A stretch of DNA of 64,000 nt from an uncultured Elusimicrobiales bacterium (GTDB taxonomy: Bacteria; Elusimicrobiota; Elusimicrobia; Elusimicrobiales; Elusimicrobiaceae), in assembly GCA_944324675.1 (NCBI GenBank), contig CALUXE010000003.1, positions 124,001 through 188,000 on the forward strand, given 5' to 3'. The notes under the pieces were generated by a model. That model worked only from the letters and a program-made list of their open reading frames with translations, ran no database searches and was not told the origin of the DNA. Within the stretch, counting starts at the first letter, position 1. Each line of letters begins with the position of its first letter. Positions 7,484 to 53,461 of this stretch are shown in pieces. A program made the position numbers and the translations under genes.

Positions 7484-8197
7484 ATGCAAATAAAAGCCTA
7501 TAAAACGCGTTTGTTTAAGGAGGGAGAGGATCTCCCCTTGTTTATAAAGGAACATCTGCCCGCCTTAAAAGAGGGCGTTGTAATAGCGGTATCTTCCAAG
7601 GTTGCTGGCCTTTGGGAAGGGCGTACGGCGCCTTTGTCACACAAAGAAGAAATAATAAAAAAAGAAAGCGACTTTTGTTTAAAGACAGCCCTTTGCCATT
7701 TTACAGTAAAGGACGGAATGGTAATGACGAACGCCGGCGTGGACGAGAGCAATATAAAAGGGAAACTTTCTCTGCTCCCTAAGCGCCCTTACAAGACGGC
7801 GGAAGTTTTAAGGAAAGAACTAAAAAAGATTTACGGCGTAAAGAAGCTGGGCGTTATTTTGACCGACAGTATGATACTGCCTTTGAGGGCCGGGGTAATA
7901 TCTGCGGCGGTCGGCTATGCTGGTTTTAGGGGCGTAAAGGATTACCGCGGCAAGGGCGACATATTCGGGCGGCAACTTAAGATGACGATGGTAAATATCG
8001 CCGATACTTTGGCGGCGGGCGCGGGGCTGCTGATGGGAGAGGGCCGGGAGAAGAAACCTTTTGCCGTAATAGAAGACGCGCCCGTAGTTTTTTGCGCCAA
8101 ACAAAAAGAGGGTGAAATAAAATACCCTCTTAAAGACGATTTATACTATCCGTTTTTTAAGCCTTATCTAAAAAAGAAGGGAGCTTATTTTTTGTAG
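7484..8197 (+). CDS. CofE-like protein (F420-0:gamma-glutamyl ligase family)
   Basis: 237-residue protein resembling coenzyme F420-0:gamma-L-glutamyl ligase. Family-like segments are SSKVAGLWEGR (the SK-x-EGR signature), the TNAGVDESNI segment (NAGID-SN in CofE), LTDSMILPLRAG where CofE has TDTFGRPWR, and YRGKGDIFGRQL. The overall order matches CofE, but the GRPWR part of the substrate motif is changed. No F420 gene (cofC, cofD, fbiC) lies in the window. Homologs are known in bacteria that do not make F420; their amino-acid acceptor is unknown to me. The gene follows hemW with no gap and overlaps the convergent coaD by 13 bp at its 3' end. Confidence 0.72.
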   Translation: MQIKAYKTRLFKEGEDLPLFIKEHLPALKEGVVIAVSSKVAGLWEGRTAPLSHKEEIIKKESDFCLKTALCHFTVKDGMVMTNAGVDESNIKGKLSLLPKRPYKTAEVLRKELKKIYGVKKLGVILTDSMILPLRAGVISAAVGYAGFRGVKDYRGKGDIFGRQLKMTMVNIADTLAAGAGLLMGEGREKKPFAVIEDAPVVFCAKQKEGEIKYPLKDDLYYPFFKPYLKKKGAYFL

Positions 8198-8667
8198 ATT
8201 TTGAGCAGTTCCTTTTCAACGTAAGGCGGCACGCTGTTTTTAAGGCGTCCGCCGAAGGCGTAGGCCTCGCGCACCATTGAGGAAGTAAGATAAGTATACT
8301 TCGCGCTGGGCATAAGGAAAACGGTTTCCATATCGGGGTTGAGTTCGCTGTTGGTGTTGGCGAGGATAAATTCGTATTCCAAATCGGTCAAAGCGCGCAG
8401 GCCGCGTATGGCCACTTTGGCTTTTTTCAGCCGCATATAGTCGGCAAGAAGGCCGTCGAAGCTGTCCACCGTAACGTTTTTAAATTGTTTTGTGCAGTGT
8501 TTAAGATGGTCAAGGCGCTGCTTTGCGGTAAAAATCGGCTTCTTGTTTTTGTTTATCAAAACGGCGACGATGACTTTGTCGAATATCTCGGCCGCGCGGC
8601 GGATAATATCAAGATGTCCGTTGGTTACGGGGTCAAAAGTTCCGGGGTATACGGCAATATTTTTCAT
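8185..8667 (-). CDS. coaD: Pantetheine-phosphate adenylyltransferase
   Basis: Catalyses the fourth step of coenzyme A synthesis, 4'-phosphopantetheine plus ATP to dephospho-CoA. The protein has 160 residues, the usual size. It opens with the nucleotidyltransferase motif YPGTFDPVTNGHLD and ends with the YLTSSMVREAY segment equivalent to ISSTxVRE. The ATG has an AGAGAGGTG site upstream. A TATAAT on the minus strand at 8687-8692 would give a leader of about 14 nt. The 3' end overlaps the convergent CofE-like gene by 13 bp, and only 33 bp separate it from dgt. Confidence 0.96.
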   Translation of the reverse strand: MKNIAVYPGTFDPVTNGHLDIIRRAAEIFDKVIVAVLINKNKKPIFTAKQRLDHLKHCTKQFKNVTVDSFDGLLADYMRLKKAKVAIRGLRALTDLEYEFILANTNSELNPDMETVFLMPSAKYTYLTSSMVREAYAFGGRLKNSVPPYVEKELLKIYKK

Positions 8668-8686
8668 AAAACACCTCTCTAACTTT

Positions 8687-8694
8687 ATTATAAT
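8687..8694. promoter_or_regulatory. Back-to-back -10 boxes between coaD and dgt
   Basis: The sequence here reads as TATAAT on both strands: 8689-8694 on the plus strand and 8687-8692 on the minus strand. On the plus side the box ends six bases before the dgt ATG, so transcription would begin at or next to the start codon. On the minus side it gives coaD a short leader with a Shine-Dalgarno. No clear -35 box is seen for either. Confidence 0.55.
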
Positions 8695-8700
8695 AATTCT

Positions 8701-9810
8701 ATGAACAAAAATCCCTTTTCAGATGAGATATACTTAAAAAGAACTTATAAGGCCGAGCCGGATTTCCGCGGGGAATATTTTAGGGACCAAACAAAAATAA
8801 TCCATTCCCAGCCGTTTAGGAGATTGAAAAGCAAGACGCAAGTCTTCGCCGCGCCCGATAATGACCATATCTGCACCCGCATAGAGCACGTTTTGCACGT
8901 AGCGACCATAGCCGCATCCATCTGCAAGGGCTTGAACAGGACAGGCAACTGGCAGCTTAACGAGGAGCTTGCCTATGCCATCGGCCTCGCGCACGATTTG
9001 GGCCATGCGCCGTTCGGGCATGAAGGCGAAAGAGCGATAGCCAAGAAAATAGCGCCCGCCAATTTTATGCATGAAGTAAACGGATACCGCGTGGTGGAAC
9101 ATCTTACCTGCTACGGTAAAGGGTTAAATCTCACCTATGCGGTAAAGGACGGGATTTTGTGCCACTGCGGGGAGGATTTTAACAATAATGCTCTAAAACC
9201 CGGCCTTAAGCCGAATGATTTGGAAGCGATAAAAGACAGAAAACACCTGCCTTCCACCTATGAAGGCTGCGTAGTGCGCCTTTCAGATAAAATAGCCTAT
9301 CTCGGCAGGGATATAGAAGACGCGGTGCGCGCGGGCATAATAACTTATAACGACGTGCCTTCCATAATCAAGAAAGAACTCGGCGGAAACAACGGCGAAA
9401 TAATCAATACCCTGGTGCTGGACCTTACGAACAATTCCGCAGACAAAGATTGTTTGGGGTTTTCGGACGAGAAATTCGCGATAATGGGCGAACTTAAAAC
9501 TTTCAATTATAAGCATATTTACAATCATTCCTCGATAGCCAAACAAAAAGACGTTTTAACTTACGCCGTAGGCGAACTGTTCGACTATTATATGGAGCTG
9601 TTCGGGAGATATTCTTTGGGGCCTGGTTACGAAAAAGAACAGAAAAAGGCCGCCAGAAGTTTTGGGCATTATATAGATTCCATGAGGGAAATATACAAAG
9701 GTGTCGACCCGAAAGTTATAGTAACCGATTATATAGCGGGTATGACGGATTCCTACGCGCAGGAGTGCATAAAGCAAGCGCTGGGCATAAATCTTAACTT
9801 CAACTTTTAG
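8701..9810 (+). CDS. dgt: Deoxyguanosinetriphosphate triphosphohydrolase-like HD protein
   Basis: HD-superfamily enzyme that hydrolyses dNTPs to nucleoside and triphosphate. The N-terminal motif IIHSQPFRRLKSKTQVF is diagnostic of Dgt proteins. The metal-binding histidines follow in RIEHVLHV and the HD pair in AHDLGHAPFGHEGE, with a later SDKIAYLGRDIEDA. At 369 residues it belongs to the shorter, widespread dGTPase-like group. Start choice: the ATG lies six bases after TATAAT and has no Shine-Dalgarno, which suggests a leaderless mRNA. It is a single-gene unit closed by the terminator at 9838. Confidence 0.93.
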   Translation: MNKNPFSDEIYLKRTYKAEPDFRGEYFRDQTKIIHSQPFRRLKSKTQVFAAPDNDHICTRIEHVLHVATIAASICKGLNRTGNWQLNEELAYAIGLAHDLGHAPFGHEGERAIAKKIAPANFMHEVNGYRVVEHLTCYGKGLNLTYAVKDGILCHCGEDFNNNALKPGLKPNDLEAIKDRKHLPSTYEGCVVRLSDKIAYLGRDIEDAVRAGIITYNDVPSIIKKELGGNNGEIINTLVLDLTNNSADKDCLGFSDEKFAIMGELKTFNYKHIYNHSSIAKQKDVLTYAVGELFDYYMELFGRYSLGPGYEKEQKKAARSFGHYIDSMREIYKGVDPKVIVTDYIAGMTDSYAQECIKQALGINLNFNF

Positions 9811-19881: not shown

Positions 19882-20682
19882 TTATTTAAGCCTGTACAGC
19901 TCTATAGTGTTTTGGGTGGTAATATCGGCTGTTTTGTTTAGCGTTTCGCCTGTAATTTCCGCGATGGTTTGGGCTATTTCCGGGATATAGGCGGGGGAAT
20001 TTCTCCGTCCGCGTTTACTTTGCGGAGGCAGGTAGGGGCAGTCGGTTTCGAGGTGGATATACTTTAGGCCGACTTTTTTTACTATTTGGCGCAAGTCGTC
20101 ATTTCTTTTATATCCTATAATGCCGTTGATGCCAAGCTTAAAGCCCATATCAAGCGCTTTAAAAGCGTCCTGCTCCCTCCCGCTGAAGCAGTGCATAATA
20201 CCGCCGGTAAATACGGCTTTTTTGAGTATGGAGAACATATCTTCATAAGCGGAGAAATCTTGGGGGTCTCTGCTCTTTCTGCAATGCAGTATAACGGGCA
20301 GGTTTACTTTTGCCGCCAATTTTAACAAAGTTTCAAAGGCTTGTTTTTGTATTTCTCTGTCTTTTGGGGGTTCGTCGTATTCATTATAATCCAAGCCGAT
20401 TTCGCCCAGCGCTTTGACTTCCGGCTTAAGAAGATATTGCTCCAAATCGTTTAAGGAGTTATCGTTAAGAGTCGGGGCGTAATCGGGGTGTATCCCGCAG
20501 ACGGGAAAGATTATGCCTTTGTACTGGCGGCTTAACTCAAGGGCGGGCTGCCATTCTTCAATTTCGCAGGCGATTTCGGCTATGCGCTTGACGTCGGCTT
20601 TGAGGCATTGTTCAATAACCTCTTTGCGGTCGGCGTCAAAGGCCGGGTCGTTAATATGCGCGTGCGAATCTATAAATTCCAT
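19882..20682 (-). CDS. tatD: TatD-family metal-dependent hydrolase/deoxyribonuclease
   Basis: TIM-barrel metallohydrolase of the TatD DNase family. Metal ligands and signatures seen: IDSHAHIND, GEIGLDY, PVILHCR, MHCFSG and LETDCPYL. Length 266 residues, as expected. Start choice: two in-frame ATGs exist, at 20688 and 20682. The first lies directly against a TATAAT. The second is six bases after it and gives the family-typical N-terminus MEFIDSHAH, so 20682 is chosen; the mRNA is then probably leaderless. Biological role in this organism unknown; homologs act in DNA repair and oxidative stress. Confidence 0.94.
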   Translation of the reverse strand: MEFIDSHAHINDPAFDADRKEVIEQCLKADVKRIAEIACEIEEWQPALELSRQYKGIIFPVCGIHPDYAPTLNDNSLNDLEQYLLKPEVKALGEIGLDYNEYDEPPKDREIQKQAFETLLKLAAKVNLPVILHCRKSRDPQDFSAYEDMFSILKKAVFTGGIMHCFSGREQDAFKALDMGFKLGINGIIGYKRNDDLRQIVKKVGLKYIHLETDCPYLPPQSKRGRRNSPAYIPEIAQTIAEITGETLNKTADITTQNTIELYRLK

Positions 20683-20688
20683 ATTCAT

Positions 20689-20697
20689 ATTATACCA
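20689..20697 (-). promoter_or_regulatory. Extended -10 box of tatD
   Basis: On the minus strand TGG-TATAAT: an extended -10 (TGn) directly upstream, with TATAAT at 20689-20694, ending six bases before the chosen tatD ATG. No Shine-Dalgarno is present. Confidence 0.6.
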
Positions 20698-28501: not shown

Positions 28502-29842
28502 TTAATCCGGCATACCGTCCCAATTAAGATTGCCGTCTTTTTTACACAATTTGGCGGCGGGCAAACCGTTGCCCAGCCCGAAGGCGTTGCCGTATACCGG
28601 CGCTTCGCTGTTGGCGATGCGGCGTTCTTGGCGGTATTGCTGAACGTAAAGATAGGGATAGTTTATAGGTTCCAAGGCGTCCGGGTGCGCAAATACAAAA
28701 TATCTTTTGTTGCCGCCGCCAATGTCTACGTATCTTACTTTAAGCTGGTTGCGCAAAGTATTTTCGGAACATTGAGTTCTGGTCATTAAAGCGGCGTATT
28801 CGGTATTAGTTATTTCTATATAATTTTGGGATATTAAATTGCGCACCTGCATTTCTATTTCCTTTTGGGTGGCGGGCAATTTCTCTCCGGGGCGGTAATA
28901 AGACTTTTCGCCGCGCAGCATTTTGGTAAAAGCGATCAGGCCTTCATCGGTCAGATTGCCCATATCGTTGAAAATGGGTTTTCTGTTTTCGTCCCTAAGG
29001 GCAAACAGATCGGCCACTGTAACGCCTTTATTTATTAAAAATTGTTTGGCGTCCGAAGATAATTTCCCCAATAAATCATTATAACCGGTAATGGTAAACA
29101 TTTTACGCACGTATACTTTATTGCTGTCGCGTTCCACAATCAGTCCGTTGGGTATTTTGCCTCCGTATTTCTGGGATAAATATTCTATTCCGTTGCTCTT
29201 TTCCGCCGTTATCATTTTGGAAAGGGTTTGCATGTCTTCGGCCGAAAAATCCTGCGCCGCCGGATCGATGATATTTCGTTCTTTCATCGTTCTTAAAAGT
29301 TCCTCTTTTGTTAAGATGTCGGGCTCCAACGCGATGAGCCTTTCTCTTGAAACCACATTGGTAAAATCCACCGCCAAGGCTTTTTTGTAGTATTCCACCG
29401 CCTGGGGTATATTGCCCGCTTTTTCCTCGCAAATACCCGCGCCGACAAGAGAGTTGATGTTTGCCGGTTCGTATTTTAGGGCCGTTTGGTAATATTTTTC
29501 CGCCTCTTTAAGATTGGCTTTTCTCATATAGATGTCGCCCAATCTCGAATAAATGTAGGCTTTATAGGGAGATTTCGCCTTCAAATAGTTCAGCGCTTTT
29601 TTAAAATTCTTTTCCGCGTTGTTAAACTTGCCCAAAATCATTTCCACGCCGGCCAGACTTATAAGGGCGTCTGCGTTTTTTGGATTTGTTTTTAGGCAGC
29701 CGGTTAAAGTCTTTTCGGCCAAAGAATATTCCTTTTCGTTAAAATACTCCTTACTTTTGGAAAGGCATGCGTCAATATTATTTTTTGCTTCGGCGGGCAA
29801 TAGCGCGAAAACTAAAATTAACAGGGCGGGAAGTAACTTCAT
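28502..29842 (-). CDS. Secreted TPR-repeat protein, function unknown
   Basis: 446 residues. A signal peptide (MKLLPALLILVFALLPAEA) is followed by about four tetratricopeptide repeats (roughly residues 25-180) such as EKNFKKALNYLKAKSPYKAYIYSRLG and AVEYYKKAL. The C-terminal half is globular, without a motif I recognise, and ends near an aspartate. TPRs usually mediate protein-protein contacts, here probably in the periplasm. Start choice: ATG at 29842 has GGAGA upstream; another ATG five codons earlier has none. It overlaps the synthase gene upstream by 4 bp, so the two are coupled. Confidence 0.8.
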   Translation of the reverse strand: MKLLPALLILVFALLPAEAKNNIDACLSKSKEYFNEKEYSLAEKTLTGCLKTNPKNADALISLAGVEMILGKFNNAEKNFKKALNYLKAKSPYKAYIYSRLGDIYMRKANLKEAEKYYQTALKYEPANINSLVGAGICEEKAGNIPQAVEYYKKALAVDFTNVVSRERLIALEPDILTKEELLRTMKERNIIDPAAQDFSAEDMQTLSKMITAEKSNGIEYLSQKYGGKIPNGLIVERDSNKVYVRKMFTITGYNDLLGKLSSDAKQFLINKGVTVADLFALRDENRKPIFNDMGNLTDEGLIAFTKMLRGEKSYYRPGEKLPATQKEIEMQVRNLISQNYIEITNTEYAALMTRTQCSENTLRNQLKVRYVDIGGGNKRYFVFAHPDALEPINYPYLYVQQYRQERRIANSEAPVYGNAFGLGNGLPAAKLCKKDGNLNWDGMPD

Positions 29843-30657
29843 AGACGGTTTCTCCATGTGTTAAAGAGTATTTTTATTTTTTCCATCTTATTTAACTTTA
29901 TCTTTTTATCGCCCAATCGGCAAGGGCGGGCGATAATTTTCGCCAATATGGCCTTATAGGTATTCCCCATCGCTCTGGCCGGGAGCATGGCTTTAAAGTC
30001 TTCTTTCGGGAGCAGTTTTTCCGCTTGGATAAAAAGGTCCTGCGCTTTTTGCGCCTCAAAGAAAAGCAGCGCTTTTGTCCTGCGGTTGTCTTTAAGGTTT
30101 AAGATGTCTTCTTCCTTTACTCCAAAAGTTTCCAAATCCTGTTTGGGTATATATATACGGTTTATCTTTGCGTCTTCGCTTACGTCCCTTACGATATTGG
30201 TGAGCTGTACCGCATAACCTAAAGCGACGGCGTATTTTTCCGTCCGCTCGTTTTTGTATCCGAAAATTTTTACGCACATCAGCCCTACGGACGATGCCAC
30301 CCTGTACATATACCATTGCAGATCGCCGAAGTTCTCATAGCGTACGGGAGTTTTTAAATCTCTTTCACAACCGTCCAGCAAGTCGGATAGATATTGTTTG
30401 GGAATATTAAAAGGCTTTACCGCTTTTAACAGTTCTTTGCCCAGTTCCGTCTTAGGGTGGTTGCCGTAGACATTGTCGAGCTCTTTTCTCAAATCGTCCA
30501 GTTTTTGCTTGGCGTCGGAATATCCTTCGTCTACAATGTCGTCTGCAAGGCGGCAAAACGCATAAATGACGCCTAAGGCTTGTTCCTTTTCTTTTGGCAG
30601 AAAGAAAAAAGCCCCGCCGAAATTAGATTTTTTGTAAGCAGGCATATTGTCGCTCAT
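29839..30657 (-). CDS. Squalene/phytoene synthase-family protein
   Basis: Head-to-head prenyl transferase fold. Both Asp-rich motifs are present: DDIVDE (first) and QLTNIVRDVSEDA (second, with the NxxRDxxED pattern), plus RVASSVGLM. 272 residues, in the range of bacterial phytoene synthase and HpnD/HpnC. No carotenoid or hopanoid partner gene is visible, so the product (presqualene diphosphate, dehydrosqualene or phytoene) cannot be named. First gene of the run to the ankyrin pseudogene. A TAGAAT at 30665-30670 ends seven bases before the ATG and there is no Shine-Dalgarno, which suggests a leaderless start. Confidence 0.88.
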   Translation of the reverse strand: MSDNMPAYKKSNFGGAFFFLPKEKEQALGVIYAFCRLADDIVDEGYSDAKQKLDDLRKELDNVYGNHPKTELGKELLKAVKPFNIPKQYLSDLLDGCERDLKTPVRYENFGDLQWYMYRVASSVGLMCVKIFGYKNERTEKYAVALGYAVQLTNIVRDVSEDAKINRIYIPKQDLETFGVKEEDILNLKDNRRTKALLFFEAQKAQDLFIQAEKLLPKEDFKAMLPARAMGNTYKAILAKIIARPCRLGDKKIKLNKMEKIKILFNTWRNRL

Positions 30658-34554: not shown

Positions 34555-35701
34555 AAAACTCTTCCGCTATTTGGGATACGTGTAAAATTTTAAGCCGTTT
34601 TTGCTTGGCGCTATGGACGGATTTTTCAAACATGTTTTTATCCGCGTAAGAATAGACCATAAGATAATCCGCCTCAAGCCCTTCAAGCGTATCGGCGATT
34701 TGCGCTATTATGTTTTTCTCGCCTTTTACTTTCGTCCAATAAGATGCGCCCGCCGACGGCAGCTCCTTGCTTTGAATACACTCTAGCAAAAAAATATTTC
34801 GCGGGCAAATGAAAAGTTCGCAGTCTTTTTGCGCTATGGCTTTTAATTCGGGCGAAAAAGAGTTTTGATGAATAATTATTTTCTTGCCCGAAAGAGTGTC
34901 TTTAAAACTTTTTGATGGGTTTATATATTGGGTTATAAATTTCACCCTGGTTGAAAGGGCGGTAAATTCCTTGCCGAACAGCTGGGCTTTTTTTAATATC
35001 GAAAAAATCTCCGCCGAATCCGAGACCATCTCGGCGGCGGTTTTTTCGCTTAATTTCAGAAGAAGTGAAAGTGCTTTTCTCAAGCCGGTAATATCGGCGC
35101 AGAAATATAGCTGGTCCAATTCAGCGGCGCTTAAGACTATCAGCGCTTTAAAGCCGGCGGTATTTAGTATTTTTAAAGAGTCTTTTATATGCCTAAAACC
35201 CAATATGGAGGGCAGAAATATAATTTCTTTTCCCAAGGGAGGCTGTTCCTTGGCCGCTCGCAGGATCTTGTGTCGGGCATAAGCGCGGGAAAAAGCCTTC
35301 TTTAAAGCGGAGGCTTTAGTTTTTTTCTTGCCCAAAAGATAATGGTTTAAAGCCGACATTAAATCGGCCGTGGGTGTTTTTGCCGGGCAAAAATCCGTAC
35401 AGGCCCCGCACATCAGGCAGGAGAGGGAAGTGTTTAAAATATCGGTTTTATCTTGTTTTAAATTCAGTTTCCGTTCGCAAACATATTTTATCAGTTGGTT
35501 GCGTCCGCGGGGCGAATAAATTTCGTTCTTTAGGGCTTTAAAAGAGGGGCATCTTTGCAAACAGGCTCCGCAGCGCGTGCAAGTGCGTGCCGCGCCGCCC
35601 GCCTGGAAGGGTCCTTCCCCCCTGATATAAAAATCAAGAGTTTGGTCGCGGCCCAAGTTTAAGGGCGCTGGGGGCAGCCTAAGATGTTTTATCTTTTTCA
35701 T
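34520..35701 (-). CDS. glcF: Iron-sulfur subunit of a glycolate/lactate-type oxidase (GlcF-like)
   Basis: 393 residues. Two ferredoxin-type clusters: CTRCGACLQRCP and CLMCGACTDFCP. The C-terminal part resembles the CCG (heterodisulfide reductase-like) region of GlcF only weakly; I do not see two clear CCG motifs. It should pass electrons from the FAD subunit encoded just upstream to a membrane acceptor. Start choice: the frame opens at a TTG at 35716; the ATG at 35701 has AAGGCG upstream. The start lies within the end of the GlcDE gene (23 bp overlap). Confidence 0.85.
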   Translation of the reverse strand: MKKIKHLRLPPAPLNLGRDQTLDFYIRGEGPFQAGGAARTCTRCGACLQRCPSFKALKNEIYSPRGRNQLIKYVCERKLNLKQDKTDILNTSLSCLMCGACTDFCPAKTPTADLMSALNHYLLGKKKTKASALKKAFSRAYARHKILRAAKEQPPLGKEIIFLPSILGFRHIKDSLKILNTAGFKALIVLSAAELDQLYFCADITGLRKALSLLLKLSEKTAAEMVSDSAEIFSILKKAQLFGKEFTALSTRVKFITQYINPSKSFKDTLSGKKIIIHQNSFSPELKAIAQKDCELFICPRNIFLLECIQSKELPSAGASYWTKVKGEKNIIAQIADTLEGLEADYLMVYSYADKNMFEKSVHSAKQKRLKILHVSQIAEEFYGKNSESNPHR

Positions 35702-37685
35702 TTTCAACGCCTTCAAAAAGGAAAGGATTTAAAATATTGTTTGGATCCAAAGCTTTCTTTAATTTGATTTGGGCCGTATTAGGATGCCATTTGTCAAAAG
35801 GGACGGCATCGCTTTTTCCCGATTTATAAGGCAAAAGCCTCAAAGTCAGCGAGGTTGCTATCCCATAGCTTCCTCTTGCGCCGCACATAAGAGCTATTAA
35901 ATCGTAGCCGGCGGTGTTTTTGACGTATTTCCCGCCGTAAGATATAAAAGAACCGTCCGGCATAACAGCCTCTATCGCGGTTACGTAATCTTTAAGCGCG
36001 GGTAAAGTTTTAGCGGAGAATACTCCGCCGATACTTCCTTTCACCGCGGGTACGGGCAGATATAAATTGTGTTTTTTGAGCTCATCTTCCAGCTCTTTCA
36101 TGCAAACCGCGGGCTGAAGTGTTATGGTATAGTCGGTTTTGTCTATCTCAATGATTCTGTTTAAATTCTTTAAAGACAGAATATTGCCCTTTTTTAATTT
36201 CAGTTTCGTGTTCAGTCCGATAATATTTAGCGGTTTGTTTTCCGCATTGGCTCGTTTGACGGCTTCAATCAGCGGTATAATGTCTTGCGCTGGTATGGAT
36301 TTCTTTGCGGAAACGGAGGCTATCGGCAGAACTTTATCGGGATTAGCGACGTTTTTTGGATCCAGCGCTGTTTTTATACAGCGAAAGACTTTCAGAGTAT
36401 TGTTATCGAACATCAAGGCCATTGCCGCACGTTTTTCAACGCCTATTCCGTGTTCTGCACTGATTGTTCCGCCAAGCGCGCAAATGGCTTGATGAATTTC
36501 TTTTATCGCCTTTTTGATATTTGAAAGTTCGTATAGATTGTCATCGTCGAAAGCTATATTGGGGTGTAAATTGCCGTCGCCCGCGTGGAAAACTATTCCC
36601 GCCCTAAGGGTGTATTTGCCGAATATGGCGGAAATTTCTTCTATCGTTTTTGGCAAATTGGCTCTGCTTACGGCGCAATCCAAGGAAAAGAGGCCTTTTC
36701 CCAAACTCGCGAGCGCGGCCGCGGCGCAAAGGCGTATCTGCCATAGGGCGCGGCGTTTATTTTCATCTTGGGCAATTTCCAGTTTTAGGGCTTTGTTTGC
36801 TTGGCACAAGGCCTCTATCTGCTTGGCCTGTTTTGGCAGTTCGTTTTTTTTACCGTCAAGTTCTATTATCAGCAAGGCTTGCGCCTGTATAGGGCAGGCG
36901 CTTGCTTGCAGAGTCGCCCGGTCAATAGCTTCCAAAGCGGAAGGGATTATGCCTGCCGAGATTATTTCCTTGACGCAGGCCATCGCGGACGTGAGTGATG
37001 GAAAGTATGCCAGAAAAGTTCTTTTAAACTGAGGTTTGGGCAGTATTTTCAGGCGCAGCTTTGTTATTAAGCCAAGAGTGCCTTCGCTTCTTAAAAGTAA
37101 AGAAAGCAAATCCGGCCCCTGGGAATTTTTTGACAAAGACATTTCCGTTCCGTCCGGCAAAATGAAGTCCGCCCCCAATACATTTGCCAAAGAGGCGCCG
37201 TATTTTAAAGTCTTTGGGCCGCCCGCGCCAAGCGCGCAGTTGCCGCCTATGGTGGAAAATTCTTTGCTTGCCGGGTCGGGCGCGTAGAAAAAGCCTTCTT
37301 TATCCAGCATTTTCTGTAAATTGCCGTTTACCGTAGAACATTGTACAACGGCATAGCCTTGCTTTATATTGATTTCTTCCACGGCGTCCAAGTGGTTTAA
37401 ATTTAATATCGCCCCGCCTTTAATGGCAACGGCTCCGCCGTCGTGATTGGTGGCCGCGGCCCGCGGCACAAAGGGAACTTTATGCTTGTTTAAAATGGCG
37501 ATTAAGGCGGGCAATTTGGATATGTCTTTTATTTCCAATACGGCTTCCGGCAGGCTTTTTACGGGACTGCCGTCAAAGCTGTTTAGCAGTAAAGCCGTTT
37601 TGTTTGTAAGGACGTTTTCCTTTCCCAGAAGTTTTTCCGCCTCTTTTTTTGCGCCTTTAAATTTGCTGGATTGTATCATGGCCAT
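35679..37685 (-). CDS. FAD-linked oxidase, GlcD-GlcE fusion
   Basis: 668 residues carrying two FAD-binding modules. Residues 1-460 are a complete GlcD-like oxidase: the PCMH FAD domain with FVPRAAATNHDGGA, STIGGNCALGAGG and SEGTLGLITKLRL, then GIVFHAGDGNLHPN and TISAEHGIGVEKR. Residues 465-640 resemble the FAD-binding part of GlcE (NRIIEIDKTDYTITLQP, KGSIGGVFSA, GKYVKNTAGYDL). The usual separate glcD and glcE are thus one gene. Substrate is a 2-hydroxy acid such as glycolate or lactate, by family only. A nearby glycerate kinase (56.8 kb) may or may not be linked. Two start ATGs, 37685 and 37679; TATAAT is very close upstream. Confidence 0.88.
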   Translation of the reverse strand: MAMIQSSKFKGAKKEAEKLLGKENVLTNKTALLLNSFDGSPVKSLPEAVLEIKDISKLPALIAILNKHKVPFVPRAAATNHDGGAVAIKGGAILNLNHLDAVEEINIKQGYAVVQCSTVNGNLQKMLDKEGFFYAPDPASKEFSTIGGNCALGAGGPKTLKYGASLANVLGADFILPDGTEMSLSKNSQGPDLLSLLLRSEGTLGLITKLRLKILPKPQFKRTFLAYFPSLTSAMACVKEIISAGIIPSALEAIDRATLQASACPIQAQALLIIELDGKKNELPKQAKQIEALCQANKALKLEIAQDENKRRALWQIRLCAAAALASLGKGLFSLDCAVSRANLPKTIEEISAIFGKYTLRAGIVFHAGDGNLHPNIAFDDDNLYELSNIKKAIKEIHQAICALGGTISAEHGIGVEKRAAMALMFDNNTLKVFRCIKTALDPKNVANPDKVLPIASVSAKKSIPAQDIIPLIEAVKRANAENKPLNIIGLNTKLKLKKGNILSLKNLNRIIEIDKTDYTITLQPAVCMKELEDELKKHNLYLPVPAVKGSIGGVFSAKTLPALKDYVTAIEAVMPDGSFISYGGKYVKNTAGYDLIALMCGARGSYGIATSLTLRLLPYKSGKSDAVPFDKWHPNTAQIKLKKALDPNNILNPFLFEGVENEKDKTS

Positions 37686-37689
37686 TACT

Positions 37690-37714
37690 ATTATAGTATT
37701 TACATTTGTATAAT
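37690..37714. promoter_or_regulatory. Divergent -10 boxes between GlcDE and the phosphatase gene
   Basis: TATAAT on the minus strand (37690-37695) and on the plus strand (37709-37714) in a 35-bp gap. The plus box ends six bases before the ATG at 37721; the minus box ends four or ten bases before the two candidate GlcDE starts. No -35 boxes or Shine-Dalgarno sites are seen. Confidence 0.55.
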
Positions 37715-37720
37715 TAAAAT

Positions 37721-38518
37721 ATGGCGAAAAGCAAATTCCGCAAAATATACGCTATAGGCGACGCGCACGGCAATTACTATTCTTTCAGCGCGGTTTTGAT
37801 TTGCGCCGGCATAATGGATCCGGAGCTTAATTGGACGGCGGGTAATTCGATAGTGGTGCAGATGGGCGACATCTTGGACAGGGGCGACAGCCCGTTGGAA
37901 ATAGACCGCCTTTTAGATGTACTTGCCATTCAAGCCAAGAAAGCGGGCGGGCAAATTATAAGGCTTGTCGGCAATCACGAATTGGAAATTTTAAGAAAGA
38001 ATTATCATATAACCTCGCTGCCCTATTTTCATATAGAAGCGTTCAGGCGCAAGCTTATAAGGGGCATTCTTAACGGCAGTTGGCAGGCGGCCTACGGCGC
38101 GCGGCATTATCTTTTTACGCATGCGGGCGTATGCGACGGGCTTTATCCCGTCCTTAAAGAAGAGATTGGCGAAAAAAGGCCAAGCCTTTCCCAAATAGCC
38201 AAGCGCATAAACGAAGTCTTTTTGGAATCGGTGCGGACGGACAGCTACCACCACGCCATATTTAACGTCAGCCATATGCGCGGCGGGCGCGACAGATACG
38301 GCGGCATATTTTGGGAAGATTTGGCTTCTCTTATCGCGGAGCACGAGTATATGCCCTATAAACAGATAGTCGGGCATACGCGCACCGGCCAAATAGTGCG
38401 CAGCGAGGACAGCAAAATTTTGGCGATAGATGTCGGGATGGAAAAAGTCTTTGACGGAGATTTTGAATATTTGGAATTTAATTCTTCGGGCAAGCCCGAA
38501 GTAGTGGGAGTAAAATAA
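37721..38518 (+). CDS. PPP-type metallophosphoesterase (calcineurin-like)
   Basis: 265 residues with all phosphoprotein-phosphatase motifs in order: GDAHGN, GDILDRGD, GNHELE, THAGV and VGHTRTG. This PPP pattern is found in bacterial Ser/Thr phosphatases, including the Shewanella-like (Shelph) group. Cytosolic, since no signal peptide is seen. Target unknown. It is the first gene of a three-gene run with mazG (TAATG overlap) and a beta-barrel protein. The start seems leaderless (TATAAT six bases upstream, no Shine-Dalgarno). Confidence 0.9.
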   Translation: MAKSKFRKIYAIGDAHGNYYSFSAVLICAGIMDPELNWTAGNSIVVQMGDILDRGDSPLEIDRLLDVLAIQAKKAGGQIIRLVGNHELEILRKNYHITSLPYFHIEAFRRKLIRGILNGSWQAAYGARHYLFTHAGVCDGLYPVLKEEIGEKRPSLSQIAKRINEVFLESVRTDSYHHAIFNVSHMRGGRDRYGGIFWEDLASLIAEHEYMPYKQIVGHTRTGQIVRSEDSKILAIDVGMEKVFDGDFEYLEFNSSGKPEVVGVK

Positions 38519-41523: not shown

Positions 41524-42591
41524 TTATTGTATTATGCCGCCGCCCAAGACGGTATCTCCGTCGTAAAACACCGCGCTTTGCCCGGCGGTAATCGACATTT
41601 GCGGTTCGTCAAAAATTACCCGCGCCTTGTCTTCCCCCAAAGGCTTTACGGAAGCCAAAGCAGGGATATGCTGGCGCCTTATTTTTACCATAGCTTTAAA
41701 CTCTCCCTGCGGCTTTCGCACCGAACACCAACTAACCAAAGCTGCGGTTAATCCGTCGGAGAATAAATCTTCCTTAAAGCCCGCCACTATTTGATTGTTT
41801 TTGGCGTCTATTTTAATTACGTATAAAGGCTTTTGGCTGCCGCCGCCGGTAAGCCCCTTTCTTTTGCCGATGGTGTAATTCCATATTCCGTTGTGCGTAC
41901 CGATAACTTTGCCCGTTTTATCCACTATTTTGCCGGGCTTGGGAGGGAATTTTAAAATATCGTTATAATCCCCGCAGTAGAAATCTTGGCTGTCGGCCTT
42001 ATCGGCTACGGGCAAAGCGTATTTTAAAGCCATTTCGCGCACCTCTTTTTTTGTATAGGCGCCGAGCGGGAATAAAATTTTCGCAAGCTGCTCTTGGCCC
42101 AACCGGTAAAGGAAATAGCTTTGGTCCTTGGTTTCATCTTTGCCCTTTTTCAGTTGCCACAGGTCGGCTTTCGGGTCGAATTCTATGATAGAATAATGGC
42201 CTGTGGCGAACTTGTCGAAATCGATACCGTTTTGTCTTGCGGCATTGGGCAAAGCGCCGAATTTAACGTAACTGTTGCACCATACACAGGGATTGGGCGT
42301 CCTGCCAAGGCGGTATTCGTCCTTAAAATTGCCCAGCACGATGTTTTTGTATTGTTCGCGGCAATCTATAACTTTAAGCGGGATTTTGAGGAAATCGGCT
42401 ACTTTCTGGGCTGTGGCGATATCGTTTTCCTCCGGGCCGAGGCAGGCTTTATTGGGCACCTTGGGCGCAGGCATGGATTCGTCCCAAATGGACATAATCG
42501 CGCCAATGACTTCATAACCTTGCTCTTTAAGCAGCAAAGCCGCCATAGCCGAATCTACGCCCCCGCTTAAACCCACCAATACTTTTTGCAT
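41524..42591 (-). CDS. mnmA: tRNA-specific 2-thiouridylase MnmA
   Basis: Thiolates U34 of Lys, Glu and Gln tRNAs. The PP-loop is LSGGVDSAMAALLL. The nucleophilic cysteines lie in NPCVWCNSYVKFG and SQDFYCGDY. 355 residues, as usual. Sulfur would come from a cysteine desulfurase such as the one at the left edge. Start choice: the ATG lies six bases after TAGAAT with an upstream TG (extended -10) and no Shine-Dalgarno, which suggests a leaderless mRNA. Confidence 0.96.
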   Translation of the reverse strand: MQKVLVGLSGGVDSAMAALLLKEQGYEVIGAIMSIWDESMPAPKVPNKACLGPEENDIATAQKVADFLKIPLKVIDCREQYKNIVLGNFKDEYRLGRTPNPCVWCNSYVKFGALPNAARQNGIDFDKFATGHYSIIEFDPKADLWQLKKGKDETKDQSYFLYRLGQEQLAKILFPLGAYTKKEVREMALKYALPVADKADSQDFYCGDYNDILKFPPKPGKIVDKTGKVIGTHNGIWNYTIGKRKGLTGGGSQKPLYVIKIDAKNNQIVAGFKEDLFSDGLTAALVSWCSVRKPQGEFKAMVKIRRQHIPALASVKPLGEDKARVIFDEPQMSITAGQSAVFYDGDTVLGGGIIQ

Positions 42592-42597
42592 AAAGAT

Positions 42598-42606
42598 ATT
42601 CTACCA
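42598..42606 (-). promoter_or_regulatory. Extended -10 box of mnmA
   Basis: TGG-TAGAAT on the minus strand, with the hexamer at 42598-42603, ending six bases before the mnmA ATG. It overlaps the stop codon region of the preceding glycosyltransferase gene, so mnmA has its own promoter. Confidence 0.58.
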
Positions 42607-43629
42607 TTAAAGCATGTTTGTTAGCTCATTAAAAACAAGTTCTGGTTTAAGGTTTACTAAACATGGCGCAGTAACCGGGTTGCAAATTGTTTTATCACAA
42701 TATAAGCAATCAAGGCCTTGTGCACTTACAAGACGGTGCTTGGGGTTGCCGGAGGGATGCCAAGTGTTAGGATTTGTGATTGTTTGTATTGTAATTGTAG
42801 GCACGTCAAGAGCTATTGCTATATGTTTTGTGCCGGTGCATACGGTTACGGCTAAATTGAGGAAACTGATATAAGAGGAAAGTTGAGTTAAATTCTCACA
42901 TTGCGGTATAAAAATATTTTTTACATCACGCGGACACATTCTTTTTGCAAAATCCTGTCCGTTTTTGTCAATAAATATGAAAATCTTAGCTTTTGCGGAA
43001 TATTTTTGAATGATCAGCTCTGCAAGCCGTTTCCAGCTTTCTGCCGGCCACATTTTTAATGGATGTGAACCTTGCGGTACAAAACCTATAAGAAGATTAT
43101 CCGAAGAGATGTTATATTTTTTAAAAAAGGCTTTTTTTATATCATGAATATCAGGGGGGAGAATCAAAGTCATTTTGGGAAAAGTTTTTACTTTCTTAAA
43201 TAGAATTCCTTCTAAGAATTTTATCTGTCTGTTAGCCGCATAAGTTTGGTTAGTAGCGTAATAGTCCGGTCGTATATTATAAATGCGGTGATATAGTTTT
43301 GGCCTTAAGAAGTAACCTCTTATTTTGTTTTCGCATTTGCTTAAAGCGCAAATAAGGGCGGTTTTTTCAGTGGGATATAAATCTATTATAAAATCATACC
43401 TTTTCTTCCTTATTTCCGATATCAATTTTAACCACGGAGTTTTATTTATTATGTAGATTTTGTTTATATCAGGGTTCCTTTCCAGTATTTCTGAAGCGGG
43501 ATATTTAGCCAAGAAGTCTATATCGGCGTTTGAAAGTTCTTCTTTTATTGCGCTTAGAAGCGGCGTGCATAGTAGGGTGTCGCCTATCTTTTTTGTCATT
43601 ATGACAAGTATTTTCAACGGTTTTTGCAT
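42607..43629 (-). CDS. Glycosyltransferase family 9 (heptosyltransferase-like)
   Basis: 340 residues. Family 9 features: ILVIMTKKIGDTLLCTPLLSA at the N-terminus (the KIGD start typical of heptosyltransferases), FVPQGSHPLKMWPAESWKRLAEL in the C-domain and CTGTKHIAIAL followed by a threonine-rich stretch. Likely adds a sugar to LPS or a related glycan. Composition is Lys/Ile/Asn-rich and clearly more AT-rich than its neighbours; no other LPS gene is next to it. Together with the odd noncoding stretch upstream, this suggests acquisition by transfer. AATGGAG precedes the ATG. Confidence 0.87.
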   Translation of the reverse strand: MQKPLKILVIMTKKIGDTLLCTPLLSAIKEELSNADIDFLAKYPASEILERNPDINKIYIINKTPWLKLISEIRKKRYDFIIDLYPTEKTALICALSKCENKIRGYFLRPKLYHRIYNIRPDYYATNQTYAANRQIKFLEGILFKKVKTFPKMTLILPPDIHDIKKAFFKKYNISSDNLLIGFVPQGSHPLKMWPAESWKRLAELIIQKYSAKAKIFIFIDKNGQDFAKRMCPRDVKNIFIPQCENLTQLSSYISFLNLAVTVCTGTKHIAIALDVPTITIQTITNPNTWHPSGNPKHRLVSAQGLDCLYCDKTICNPVTAPCLVNLKPELVFNELTNML

Positions 43630-44136: not shown

Positions 44137-44145
44137 TGATAAAAT
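44137..44145 (+). promoter_or_regulatory. Extended -10 box of rplU
   Basis: TGA-TAAAAT with the hexamer at 44140-44145, six bases before the rplU ATG. No Shine-Dalgarno. A transcript from an earlier promoter, including the 44092-44115 hairpin as a leader, is an alternative. Confidence 0.5.
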
Positions 44146-44151
44146 AAAGTT

Positions 44152-44460
44152 ATGTATTCAATAATAGAAACAGGTGGAAAACAGTACTGGGTAACCCCCG
44201 GTCAAAATCTGCAGGTTGAAAAACTGGAAGCTGAGGTCGGTTCTACCGTAGAGCTTAAAGCTCTGTGGGCGGCTGAAGCGGAAGGTACCTCGTCAGATGC
44301 CAAGGCGGCGAAAACCGCCAAGGTCACCGCGGAAGTCGTAAGACATTTGCGCGGTCGCAAGATTATTGTTTTCAAGAAAAGACCCAAAAAAGGTTACGAA
44401 AGGACCATGGGCCACAGACAAAATCTTACAGAAATCAAGATTAAAGAAATAATCTTATAA
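44152..44460 (+). CDS. rplU: 50S ribosomal protein L21
   Basis: 102 residues, beginning [20 protein letters not shown] and ending with the RNA-binding [16 protein letters not shown]. Standard L21. The middle has a small Ala/Lys-rich stretch typical of variation in this region. First gene of rplU-rpmA, and obgE follows after two lipoprotein genes. No ribosome-binding site is visible before its ATG, unlike rpmA. Confidence 0.97.
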
Positions 44461-51211: not shown

Positions 51212-52561
51212 TTAAAAATTATCCGCCGCGTAAACCGCCATAAATCCGCCCTCGGCGGTATCGTAAACGGCCGCCAGCGTGTTTTTAAACGGGCCGAAAT
51301 CGCCCTGCTTCATATCGTAAAGCGTGCCTTGCAGCGGCAGTACTTTATATTTGCCGAAATTGCTTCCCGTCCATTTAAGTATATAAATATTTGCCGAGGG
51401 ATTGGTTTTGTCCATATTATTTTGCGCGGCGGCCAAATAAGTGGCGCCGTCTTCCCCGCCGTTAAATATCGGCAGGGGCAGATAAAGGGCGTGTTCGGTT
51501 TTGTTAAATTCAAAGACATTGGGCGAAACGGAAAAATTAGCTCCGCCGTCGGACAGAGAGAAGTCTGTCGGCTCGCCAAGGCGCGTTCTTATCTTGCCGT
51601 CTTGGGTGATGTATATGGGAGTCAATATGCCGTCGCCTTCCAAATCCGCCATATTAAAGCCGAAGATGGTGTTCAAACCTTTTACCTCCAGAGGTTGGCC
51701 GGGTTGGTATGCGCCGTTTTCAAAAATCAATTTGGCGGGCGAGGTAAGATTATTTCTTTTACCCGTTTTTACCACTTTTTGCGTATAAAGCACTCTTGGC
51801 CTGTTGTAAGGCGCAAGGCCTTGGGTTAGTCCGTCGAAGACTTTTCCCTCTTTGAGTTCGCCGCCCTCCATTGAAAGGGGCAGCGTTTGGAAGGTATTGT
51901 CCAACGGGTTAAAAACGGTAGCAAACAGCGTCGCCTTTCCGGTATCGGGCAGCGGCGCGCAGTCTAGTGCGAGGATATTTTTTACCCGCGGGATTTTGTA
52001 AGACGCTTTTTCAAGAAGTTTTTTATTTTCCGAAAGCGAAAAGACTTTTATTTCATTGTCGCGCCCAAAGGATAGTACGGCTTCGTTTATATTGTCGCCG
52101 TTTATATCGCACAAAGCCGCTAATCTGGGCGCCTCTTTAAAAGCCGGGCTTTGCCAAAGCGGTTTTACGGCGTTTTGTTCGGGAAATTCGGCTTCTAAAA
52201 ATAAGATAGCCCCGTCTTCTTGTTTGCTTTTGTTTCTAAATTGCGCTTTTAAGCCGAGCACATCTATATTTTTATCCAGTTCGCCTACGGCGAAAAGGTC
52301 TTTGGCTCGGGCAACGGTGCCGTTTATTCTTTCGCCCTCTTCCCGGCCGAGCGACTTGCCCGTTTTGGGGTTGATTATTTCTTCACCGGGCAATATGATT
52401 TCAAACAAATCGCCGCCGCGGGGGAGCTTTTTGACTTCCGAGAGGTCAAAATAAACGGTTTTTCCTTCTTGTTTTATCACTTCGGCGCCTTGCGCGAAAA
52501 GTGGCGCGCCAAAAGCGAAAAACGCGAAAGCGGAAAGCAGAATTTTTAAGGGAGTTTTCAT
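51212..52561 (-). CDS. Secreted protein with FG-GAP/VCBS-like repeats
   Basis: 449 residues. Signal peptide MKTPLKILLSAFAFFAFGAPLFA. The N-terminal part (KTVYFDL, GGDLFEII) is a small beta domain. Further on, segments such as LAALCDINGDNINEAVLSFG and NMADLEGDGILTPIYIT are FG-GAP-like calcium-binding repeats, suggesting a beta-propeller. Exported; partner unknown. Start choice: ATG six bases after TAGAAT (52568-52573), no Shine-Dalgarno, hence probably leaderless. Divergent from nadK. Confidence 0.8.
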   Translation of the reverse strand: MKTPLKILLSAFAFFAFGAPLFAQGAEVIKQEGKTVYFDLSEVKKLPRGGDLFEIILPGEEIINPKTGKSLGREEGERINGTVARAKDLFAVGELDKNIDVLGLKAQFRNKSKQEDGAILFLEAEFPEQNAVKPLWQSPAFKEAPRLAALCDINGDNINEAVLSFGRDNEIKVFSLSENKKLLEKASYKIPRVKNILALDCAPLPDTGKATLFATVFNPLDNTFQTLPLSMEGGELKEGKVFDGLTQGLAPYNRPRVLYTQKVVKTGKRNNLTSPAKLIFENGAYQPGQPLEVKGLNTIFGFNMADLEGDGILTPIYITQDGKIRTRLGEPTDFSLSDGGANFSVSPNVFEFNKTEHALYLPLPIFNGGEDGATYLAAAQNNMDKTNPSANIYILKWTGSNFGKYKVLPLQGTLYDMKQGDFGPFKNTLAAVYDTAEGGFMAVYAADNF

Positions 52562-52567
52562 AAAATT

Positions 52568-52614
52568 ATTCTAGCTTATTTGTCTAATAAATAGGAAGAG
52601 TAATTTGCTAGAAT
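52568..52614. promoter_or_regulatory. Divergent -10 boxes between the FG-GAP protein and nadK
   Basis: TAGAAT on the minus strand (52568-52573), six bases before the ATG at 52561, and TGC-TAGAAT on the plus strand (hexamer 52609-52614), seven bases before the ATG at 52622. Neither gene has a Shine-Dalgarno. Confidence 0.55.
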
Positions 52615-52621
52615 TATGTAT

Positions 52622-53461
52622 ATGGAAATAAAGAAAGCGGCGATATTTTTTAATCCTTCGCGCGAAAGCTGCTCGGCGGCGGCTTCTATGCTGGCCGAAG
52701 CGGCGCAAAAAAGCGGGATAAATTATTATTTCGCCGATTATGCTTCATCGTTAGGGGACGTTAAACCCGATACCGATATTATATTTTCGGTCGGCGGGGA
52801 CGGAACTATTTTGAAAACGGCTCGCGCGGCGGCCAAAAGCAATATAAAGATTTTGGGCATAAACGCGGGGCATTTGGGGTTTTTGGCGGCGGCGGAGCGC
52901 GGGCTGGACTTCCTTAAACTTTTTGAAGATATAAAAAAAGACAGTTTCATTTCCCAAAGCCGTATGATGTTAAATTGCCGCGTATACAGGCAAGGGCGGG
53001 AAGTGTTTTGCGACTTGGCTTTAAACGAAGCCGCGGTGAGGGCTGTTTCGCCAAGAAGCGTCAAACTGAGCGCGCAATATTGTTCTCTACCCATAAAGGA
53101 ATATACGGGCGACGGACTTTTGGCGGCCACTCCTACGGGGTCGACCGCTTACAATTTGGCGGCGGGCGGGCCGATAGCCATGCCGGAACTTGACGTTTTT
53201 ATTTTAACGCCGATATGTCCGCATACTTTAAACCAGCGTCCTTTGCTGCTGCCGAGCGCGGGCGAGCTGCGCGTTAAGGTTATGTCGGAAAAGAGCCAAT
53301 CTGACGCGGCGCTCAGCTTGGACGGGCAAATAAACTTCCCTTTGGATTGCGGCGACGAAATATCGATAAAAAACTATGAGGGCGGAGTAAACATTTTATT
53401 TCCCAAGGGATACGATTTTTTTAATATATTGAGCATAAAGCTTAAGTGGGACAGCAGATAA
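52622..53461 (+). CDS. nadK: NAD kinase
   Basis: Phosphorylates NAD to NADP. The GGDGT motif is in FSVGGDGTILKTAR; LALNEAAVR and YTGDGLLAATPTGSTAYNLAAGGP follow. 279 residues. Start choice: ATG at 52622 (MEIKKAAIFF) lies seven bases after an extended -10 TAGAAT; an ATG two codons earlier would overlap that box. The stop overlaps the recN ATG (TAATG). Confidence 0.95.
   Translation: MEIKKAAIFFNPSRESCSAAASMLAEAAQKSGINYYFADYASSLGDVKPDTDIIFSVGGDGTILKTARAAAKSNIKILGINAGHLGFLAAAERGLDFLKLFEDIKKDSFISQSRMMLNCRVYRQGREVFCDLALNEAAVRAVSPRSVKLSAQYCSLPIKEYTGDGLLAATPTGSTAYNLAAGGPIAMPELDVFILTPICPHTLNQRPLLLPSAGELRVKVMSEKSQSDAALSLDGQINFPLDCGDEISIKNYEGGVNILFPKGYDFFNILSIKLKWDSR

What the first reader, a model, noticed from the sequence alone, without database searches (positions are those of the whole stretch)
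8689..8701. dgt appears to be leaderless
TATAAT ends six bases before the ATG, so the transcription start would fall at the start codon. No Shine-Dalgarno is present. The same spacing recurs at tatD, the synthase, the phosphatase, mnmA, rplU, the FG-GAP protein and nadK, while many other genes here have strong AGGAG sites.
Basis: partly seen in the sequence, partly recalled or inferred. Interest (0 to 1): 0.55.

Follow-up and report, generated by a model that had tools for sequence, protein, structure and literature searches.

The report
Leaderless genes in gut Elusimicrobia
In this gut bacterium a minority of genes, dgt among them, carry their RNA-polymerase signal so close to the start codon that the messenger RNA probably begins at the start codon itself, a known mode of expression that sequence data here extend to a little-studied group.

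Summary
TATAAT (8689-8694) lies exactly 6 bases before the dgt ATG (8701), without a Shine-Dalgarno (SD). The other seven genes named show N6 or N7 (tatD and nadK from their second ATG). In 402 genes called from 464 kb of this genome, TANAAT peaks at spacing 6: 21 genes, 2.8 per spacing elsewhere, shuffles averaging 1.8 (maximum 7). These genes lack an SD (0/21 vs 122/381), are mostly first in their transcription unit, and have a pyrimidine before the ATG. At dgt, 24 of 30 loci in the family keep N6 (3 more N7/N8). TATAAT-N6-ATG exceeds TATAAT-N10-ATG in 134 of 142 genomes of the class but 18 of 105 of other classes. Best reading: a sigma-70-type promoter whose +1 is the A of ATG gives a leaderless mRNA, a minority mode (about 5% of genes). 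Also seen: dgt faces coaD across a palindromic -10; in 6 of 26 loci their start codons are only 20-24 bp apart, both directly behind a -10, neither with an SD. Leaderless genes are known elsewhere; this is a new member. No transcript ends were available.

The parts
8701..9810 (+). dgt, dGTP triphosphohydrolase family, 369 aa; proposed leaderless, +1 = A of ATG
   Evidence: TIGR01353 E 1.6e-54, above its cut-off. The alignment starts at residue 1 in 27 of the 30 loci read, own included, and at residue 2-3 in the other 3.
8689..8694 (+). -10 element TATAAT of dgt, 6 bases before ATG
   Evidence: kept in relatives.
8685..8696 (.). palindrome TTATTATAATAA containing the -10 on both strands
   Evidence: Read directly.
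8687..8692 (-). same -10 read on the minus strand (TATAAT), predicted for coaD; implied coaD start site 8680, 13-nt leader
   Evidence: inference from canonical spacing.
8672..8679 (-). Shine-Dalgarno GAGAGGTG of coaD
8185..8667 (-). coaD, pantetheine-phosphate adenylyltransferase, divergent neighbour with a leader
   Evidence: TIGR01510 E 2.5e-57.
19882..20682 (-). tatD, proposed leaderless from the second ATG; -10 TATAAT 20689-20694
   Evidence: N6 in 11 of 27 loci, own included.
29839..30657 (-). squalene/phytoene synthase, TAGAAT 7 bases before ATG
37721..38518 (+). metallophosphatase, TATAAT (37709-37714) 6 bases before ATG
   Evidence: relatives.
35679..37685 (-). FAD-linked oxidase, divergent partner 35 bp from 37721, -10-like TACTAT at N7 (TATAAT at N4)
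41524..42591 (-). mnmA, TAGAAT (42598-42603) 6 bases before ATG
   Evidence: lies 15 bp behind another gene.
44152..44460 (+). rplU, TAAAAT (44140-44145) 6 bases before ATG
   Evidence: N6 in 12 of 30 loci, own included.
51212..52561 (-). FG-GAP-like protein (Pfam match below its cut-off), TAGAAT (52568-52573) 6 bases before ATG
52622..53461 (+). nadK from its second ATG, TAGAAT (52609-52614) 7 bases before it

Best explanation
The hexamer upstream of dgt is the -10 element of a sigma-70-type promoter, and transcription starts at the A of the ATG, so the mRNA has no leader and is translated without an SD. Shown here: the exact position, the statistical excess of this one spacing, absence of SD, promoter-like context and conservation. 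Inferred: the start site, and translation from the 5'-terminal AUG (published models: 70S ribosome, or 30S with initiator tRNA and IF2). It is a minority mode (21 of 402 genes, 17 of 178 operon-first genes by the strict motif, chance matches included) beside SD-led initiation. The signal is seen in the class Elusimicrobia and not in the sampled other classes of the phylum. At dgt the -10 is palindromic and probably also drives coaD in the other direction with a 13-nt SD leader.
For: Spacing peak, 21 of 402 genes vs 2.8, shuffles max 7 in 300 runs. Motif-specific: at spacing 6 TATAAT 8, TAAAAT 7, TAGAAT 5, while TAATAT, ATTAAT, TTAAAT, AATTAT give 1, 0, 0, 1; ATAATT gives 2 at spacing 6 and 5 at spacing 5, where it overlaps TATAAT-T. 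SD 0/21 vs 122/381, P 9e-4; extended -10 TGn 8/21 vs 21/381, P 3e-5. Operon-first: 17 of 178 first genes vs 4 of 228 others, P 5e-4. Pyrimidine at -1: 18/21 vs 223/385 (P 0.012); G018 23/25 vs 203/334 (P 0.001); G203 27/32 vs 151/273 (P 0.002). Same peak in two relatives: G018 25 of 359 genes vs 3.2; G203, 69% GC, TANNNT 32 of 305 vs 2.4. dgt: N6 in 24 of 30 loci, own included, N7/N8 in 3. N6 vs N10 across 247 genomes.
Against: No transcript 5' ends. Of 30 dgt loci 2 lack a near -10 (G009, G016) and G021 has only an SD-like site. Orthologues switch: N6 in 12 of 30 rplU, 6 of 29 mnmA, 11 of 27 tatD loci. mnmA lies 15 bp after an upstream gene and may be co-transcribed. With a looser 4-base SD definition 2 of the 21 genes have one (197 of 381 others). 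The loose motif TANNNT is less striking in this AT-richer genome: 32 at spacing 6 vs 13.9. AUG preference is not visible in the own genome (19/21 vs 355/381). By the tool's own control (pattern reversed) genomes of other classes also show an N6 excess (for example G060 40 vs 16); I discount it because they show as much at N10 (57 vs 31). No 16S rRNA was found in the own assembly, so its anti-SD was not read.
Confidence: 0.78

Rival explanations
1. Not strictly leaderless: RNA polymerase starts 1-4 nt up- or downstream, leaving a tiny leader or several start sites.
For: Two dgt relatives have N8 and one N7; synthase and nadK have N7.
Against: Sharp peak at 6 (3, 21, 4 genes at 5, 6, 7) and pyrimidine at -1.
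Confidence: 0.11
2. The TATAAT belongs to the divergent coaD only; because it is palindromic it merely looks like a dgt promoter, and dgt is transcribed from inside coaD with a long SD-less leader.
For: The palindrome gives a perfect TATAAT on the minus strand, and the implied coaD leader carries an SD.
Against: The distance to dgt is N6 in 24 of 30 loci while the gap to coaD varies from 20 to 64 bp; in the 12 loci of genus g6 the element is TATCAT preceded by TGG, an extended -10 in the dgt direction.
Confidence: 0.06
3. AT-rich upstream sequence (for example an S1-binding stretch or open structure) favoured for translation, with TATAAT arising by composition.
For: Bases -6 to -1 in the 21 genes are mostly A or T.
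Against: Four of five tested rearrangements of the hexamer show no peak and the fifth overlaps TATAAT; the 69% GC relative G203 has the peak too, with C at -1 in 23 of 32.
Confidence: 0.03
4. Chance coincidence at dgt.
For: TANAAT-N6-ATG also occurs at non-starts: 3 of 9 sites in the window.
Against: Conservation at dgt across genera and the genome-wide peak.
Confidence: 0.02

Closest known systems
Leaderless (-10-motif or TA-led) genes of Deinococcus-Thermus (PMC12340547: outline, first third of Results, Discussion read) and of Actinobacteria and others (PMC3160421: passages and section 7 read)
   Same: TANNNT-type -10 about six to seven bases before the start codon, no SD, SD-led genes alongside; in PMC3160421 the signal is TANNNT at high GC and has a TG before the -10 in several low-GC genomes, as here in G203 and G000.
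   Different: Here about 5% of genes by the strict motif rather than around 20% (Actinobacteria) to 40% (Deinococcus-Thermus) in PMC3160421; another phylum. The list of groups with leaderless genes in its section 7 does not name Elusimicrobia, though it includes one genome unclassified in RefSeq.
Bidirectional promoters with a near-symmetric -10 (PMC10268837, first third read; PMC12825309, search listing with the start of the abstract only)
   Different: Reported start sites are usually 18 bp apart; here the implied distance is 21 bp in the window and 21-25 bp in the six compact relatives, with leaderless mRNA on one or both sides.

Membership tests
Leaderless gene | -10 element at a distance that puts +1 on the start codon | tested here: met
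   N6 at dgt; peak at 6 in 402 genes.
Leaderless gene | No Shine-Dalgarno | tested here: met
   None at dgt; 0/21 vs 122/381; with a looser definition 2/21 vs 197/381.
Leaderless gene | Mostly single or operon-first genes | tested here: met
   17 of 21 after refined calling; dgt is divergent from coaD.
Leaderless gene | AUG start | tested here: met
   19/21 in G000 (not enriched: 355/381 of the rest); 25/25 in G018 (344/359 overall); 31/32 in G203 (231/305 overall). My start choice favours ATG.
Leaderless gene | mRNA 5' end mapped at the start codon | not testable with these tools
   No RNA data.
Leaderless gene | Translation without a leader, SD-independent | not testable with these tools
   Needs reporter or in vitro translation.
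Bidirectional promoter | Symmetric -10 (here between divergent genes) | tested here: met
   Palindrome 8685-8696; in relatives.
Bidirectional promoter | Divergent start sites about 18 bp apart (commonest arrangement, others are reported) | tested here: inconclusive
   Implied 8701 and 8680, 21 bp; start sites are inferred, not mapped.
Bidirectional promoter | Transcripts detected in both directions | not testable with these tools
   No RNA data.

The most novel reading that the evidence does not exclude
In this lineage one symmetric core promoter of about 20-35 bp, lying wholly between two start codons, makes two leaderless mRNAs. The two genes are then coupled by which way RNA polymerase binds. 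The pair can be relaxed in evolution by giving one side an SD leader (coaD in the window species) while the other side stays leaderless at fixed spacing.
Probability: 0.5. Interest if true: 0.6.

Novelty: new member of a known kind. Interest (0 to 1): 0.45.

Why it matters
It extends leaderless expression, by sequence evidence, to the class Elusimicrobia, with no such excess in the sampled other classes of the phylum. Orthologous genes differ between leaderless-type and SD-led starts within one family, a natural series for how the switch happens. It suggests other start codons for tatD and nadK. The compact divergent pairs suggest a minimal two-way promoter that could be tested in a cultured relative.

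Tried and rejected
Chance and AT-richness: rejected by shuffles, rearranged hexamers and the GC-rich relative. A known RNA element: no Rfam match at gathering score anywhere in the window. A class-specific excess of the exact 20-bp double arrangement (CATNNNNNNANTATANTNNNNNNATG): by my hand count, each palindromic site counted once, 31 hits vs 8 for the reversed control in the 142 class genomes and 35 vs 12 in the 105 others, so it is not class-specific and is not used as support. A consensus -35: only a weak trend at -35 to -30 in 21 genes, not claimed. Reading the own anti-SD: no 16S rRNA match in the assembly (the control search rang in 9 of 14 known genomes). Papers joining 'leaderless' with Elusimicrobi*: 2; passages of PMC10783764 read (Elusimicrobia appear there in a table of anti-SD types, CCUCCUUU); the other, a mycobacterial chaperone paper, seen as listing only.

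Limits of my gene calls: a simple codon-usage caller of my own with a built-in preference for ATG, not a standard program. The first version missed the heptosyltransferase before mnmA, so operon-first counts were redone: first version 18 of 21, refined 17 of 21. Divergent pairs were inspected only for gaps up to 70 bp.

Full report
What the window is. The window is C3:124001-188000 of a 1,399,677-base, 17-contig genome. Of the nine best loci encoding a relative of its dgt (98 to 61% identity), eight have titles naming Elusimicrobiales, Elusimicrobia, Elusimicrobiota or Elusimicrobium and one reads 'uncultured bacterium'. So this is an Elusimicrobiota genome; the class name Elusimicrobia is inferred from those titles and the kinship labels.

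The site. TATAAT stands at 8689-8694, AATTCT follows, and the dgt ATG is at 8701. With a canonical sigma-70 geometry (positions -7 and -11 best conserved; PMC10268837, first third read) the +1 is the A of the ATG. No SD is present. The divergent gene coaD (8185-8667, minus) starts 33 bp away and has the SD GAGAGGTG. The sequence 8685-8696, TTATTATAATAA, is a perfect palindrome, so the same element reads TATAAT on the minus strand (8692 to 8687); its implied coaD start is 8680, giving a 13-nt leader with that SD (start sites inferred).

More than chance. I called 402 genes with complete upstream regions in 464 kb (400 kb from contigs C1 and C2 plus the window), choosing starts by coding score and start codon only, without looking upstream. 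TANAAT at spacings 4 to 9 before the start codon: 3, 3, 21, 4, 3, 2; mean at spacings 9-49: 2.8; P 3e-12; 300 dinucleotide shuffles: mean 1.8, maximum 7. In the 347 genes outside the window: 16 at spacing 6 vs 2.5. Four rearrangements of the hexamer do not peak; ATAATT, which overlaps TATAAT-T, gives 5 at spacing 5. The loose motif TANNNT gives 32 at spacing 6 vs 13.9. The 21 genes: SD 0 of 21 against 122 of 381, or 2 of 21 against 197 of 381 by a looser definition; TGn extended -10 in 8 of 21 against 21 of 381; 17 of 21 first in their transcription unit after refined calling (17 of 178 first genes vs 4 of 228 others, P 5e-4). A pyrimidine stands at -1 in 18 of 21 against 223 of 385, as at a pyrimidine-purine start site (recalled preference). 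Two further genes, tatD among them, fit from another in-frame ATG, so strict cases are 23 of 402, about 3 of which chance would give.

All eight named genes hold: dgt and four others at N6, tatD at N6 from its second ATG, the synthase at N7, nadK at N7 from its second ATG. For mnmA there is a caveat: it follows a heptosyltransferase gene by 15 bp.

Relatives. dgt was found in 31 of 60 genomes searched, the own one included (in none of the 24 genomes of family f2 at E 0.001), and 30 loci were read: N6 in 24, N7 or N8 in 3, an SD-like site in 1, nothing near in 2. Some are near-identical to the own one (G001, G008, G017) and are not independent. In the 12 loci of genus g6 the element is TATCAT preceded by TGG, while sequence further upstream differs visibly between species. 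rplU, mnmA and tatD orthologues are N6 in 12 of 30, 6 of 29 and 11 of 27 loci; the others have N5/N7/N8, an SD-like site or neither.

Class signal. TATAAT-N6-ATG against TATAAT-N10-ATG in 247 genomes of the phylum (summed by hand): class Elusimicrobia 142 genomes, 5956 vs 2892, N6 higher in 134; other classes 105 genomes, 4335 vs 5520, N6 higher in 18. The 8 class genomes without N6 above N10 are 5 of f2, 2 of f4 and 1 of f9. Against the reversed-pattern control, genomes of other classes also show some N6 excess (G060: 40 vs 16), but as much at N10 (57 vs 31). Gene-level checks: G018, 25 of 359 genes at N6 vs 3.2 per spacing, all ATG, 23 of 25 operon-first, SD 0 of 25 vs 110 of 334; G203 (69% GC, family f7), TANNNT 32 of 305 vs 2.4, C at -1 in 23 of 32, SD 2 of 32 vs 56 of 273; G067 (another class), no peak, but only 99 genes.

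Divergent pairs. coaD was found beside dgt in 26 of the 30 loci. In 6 (G015 20 bp; G023 22; G018 23; G006, G007, G013 24) the two start codons are 20-24 bp apart, neither gene has an SD, and a -10-like hexamer lies N6 (N7 for coaD in G018) from both. In the other 20 the gap is 33-64 bp and coaD has an SD-like site in 16; the dgt side there is N6 in 17, N8 in 2, none in 1. So the dgt side is nearly fixed while the coaD side changes. The FAD-oxidase/metallophosphatase pair of the window (gap 35) shows a -10 adjacent to both starts in 12 of the 15 loci of its own genus that I examined, with gaps of 24-45 bp, and on both sides in none of 7 of genus g6 (23 of 30 loci examined). In the own sample 5 of the 14 divergent pairs with gaps of 1-70 bp (44 divergent pairs in all) look leaderless on both sides, counting nadK from its second ATG and spacings 5 to 7. 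The exact 20-bp arrangement is not class-specific.

How it most likely works. RNA polymerase with the housekeeping sigma factor binds an extended or plain -10, starts at the A of ATG, and the ribosome initiates on the 5'-terminal AUG. Where the -10 is symmetric between divergent genes, polymerase can bind either way. The promoter geometry and its conservation are shown; the start site, translation and two-way transcription are inferred. On re-checking I lowered the main odds from 0.85 to 0.78 and the tiny-leader rival from 0.2 to 0.11, only because the first set added up to more than one.

Known or new. Leaderless genes with a -10 motif 6-7 bp before the ORF are established in Deinococcus-Thermus (PMC12340547, parts read) and were inferred in 207 of 953 bacterial genomes in 2011 (PMC3160421, section 7), whose list of groups does not name Elusimicrobia. 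Among the rows listed by my searches (the lists of 10, 43 and 49 were capped below the number of papers found) I saw no paper reporting leaderless genes in Elusimicrobia or two-way leaderless promoters; the library holds open-licence papers only. This is a new member of a known kind, with the compact two-way arrangement as a possible variant.

Noticed in passing
window 20682-20688 and 52616-52622: The first ATG of tatD directly abuts the -10 and that of nadK lies one base behind it; the second in-frame ATG of each is the better start, so automatic annotation may give both proteins two extra residues.
   Followed up: partly
window 41524-43629, minus strand: mnmA starts 15 bp behind a heptosyltransferase gene, with an extended -10 (TGG-TAGAAT) just after that gene's stop codon.
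   Followed up: partly
G063, G070, G078, G081, G136, G172 and, with small differences, G204: A nearly fixed 26-base sequence containing CATATCATTATAATC recurs in genomes of other Elusimicrobiota classes; it may be a conserved divergent promoter or a coding stretch.
   Followed up: no
G000, whole genome: No 16S rRNA match in an assembly rated 99.74% complete; probably an assembly gap.
   Followed up: no
L205, L208, L215: The match to the FAD-linked oxidase contains one stop codon in several relatives; frameshifted or split genes, or assembly errors.
   Followed up: no
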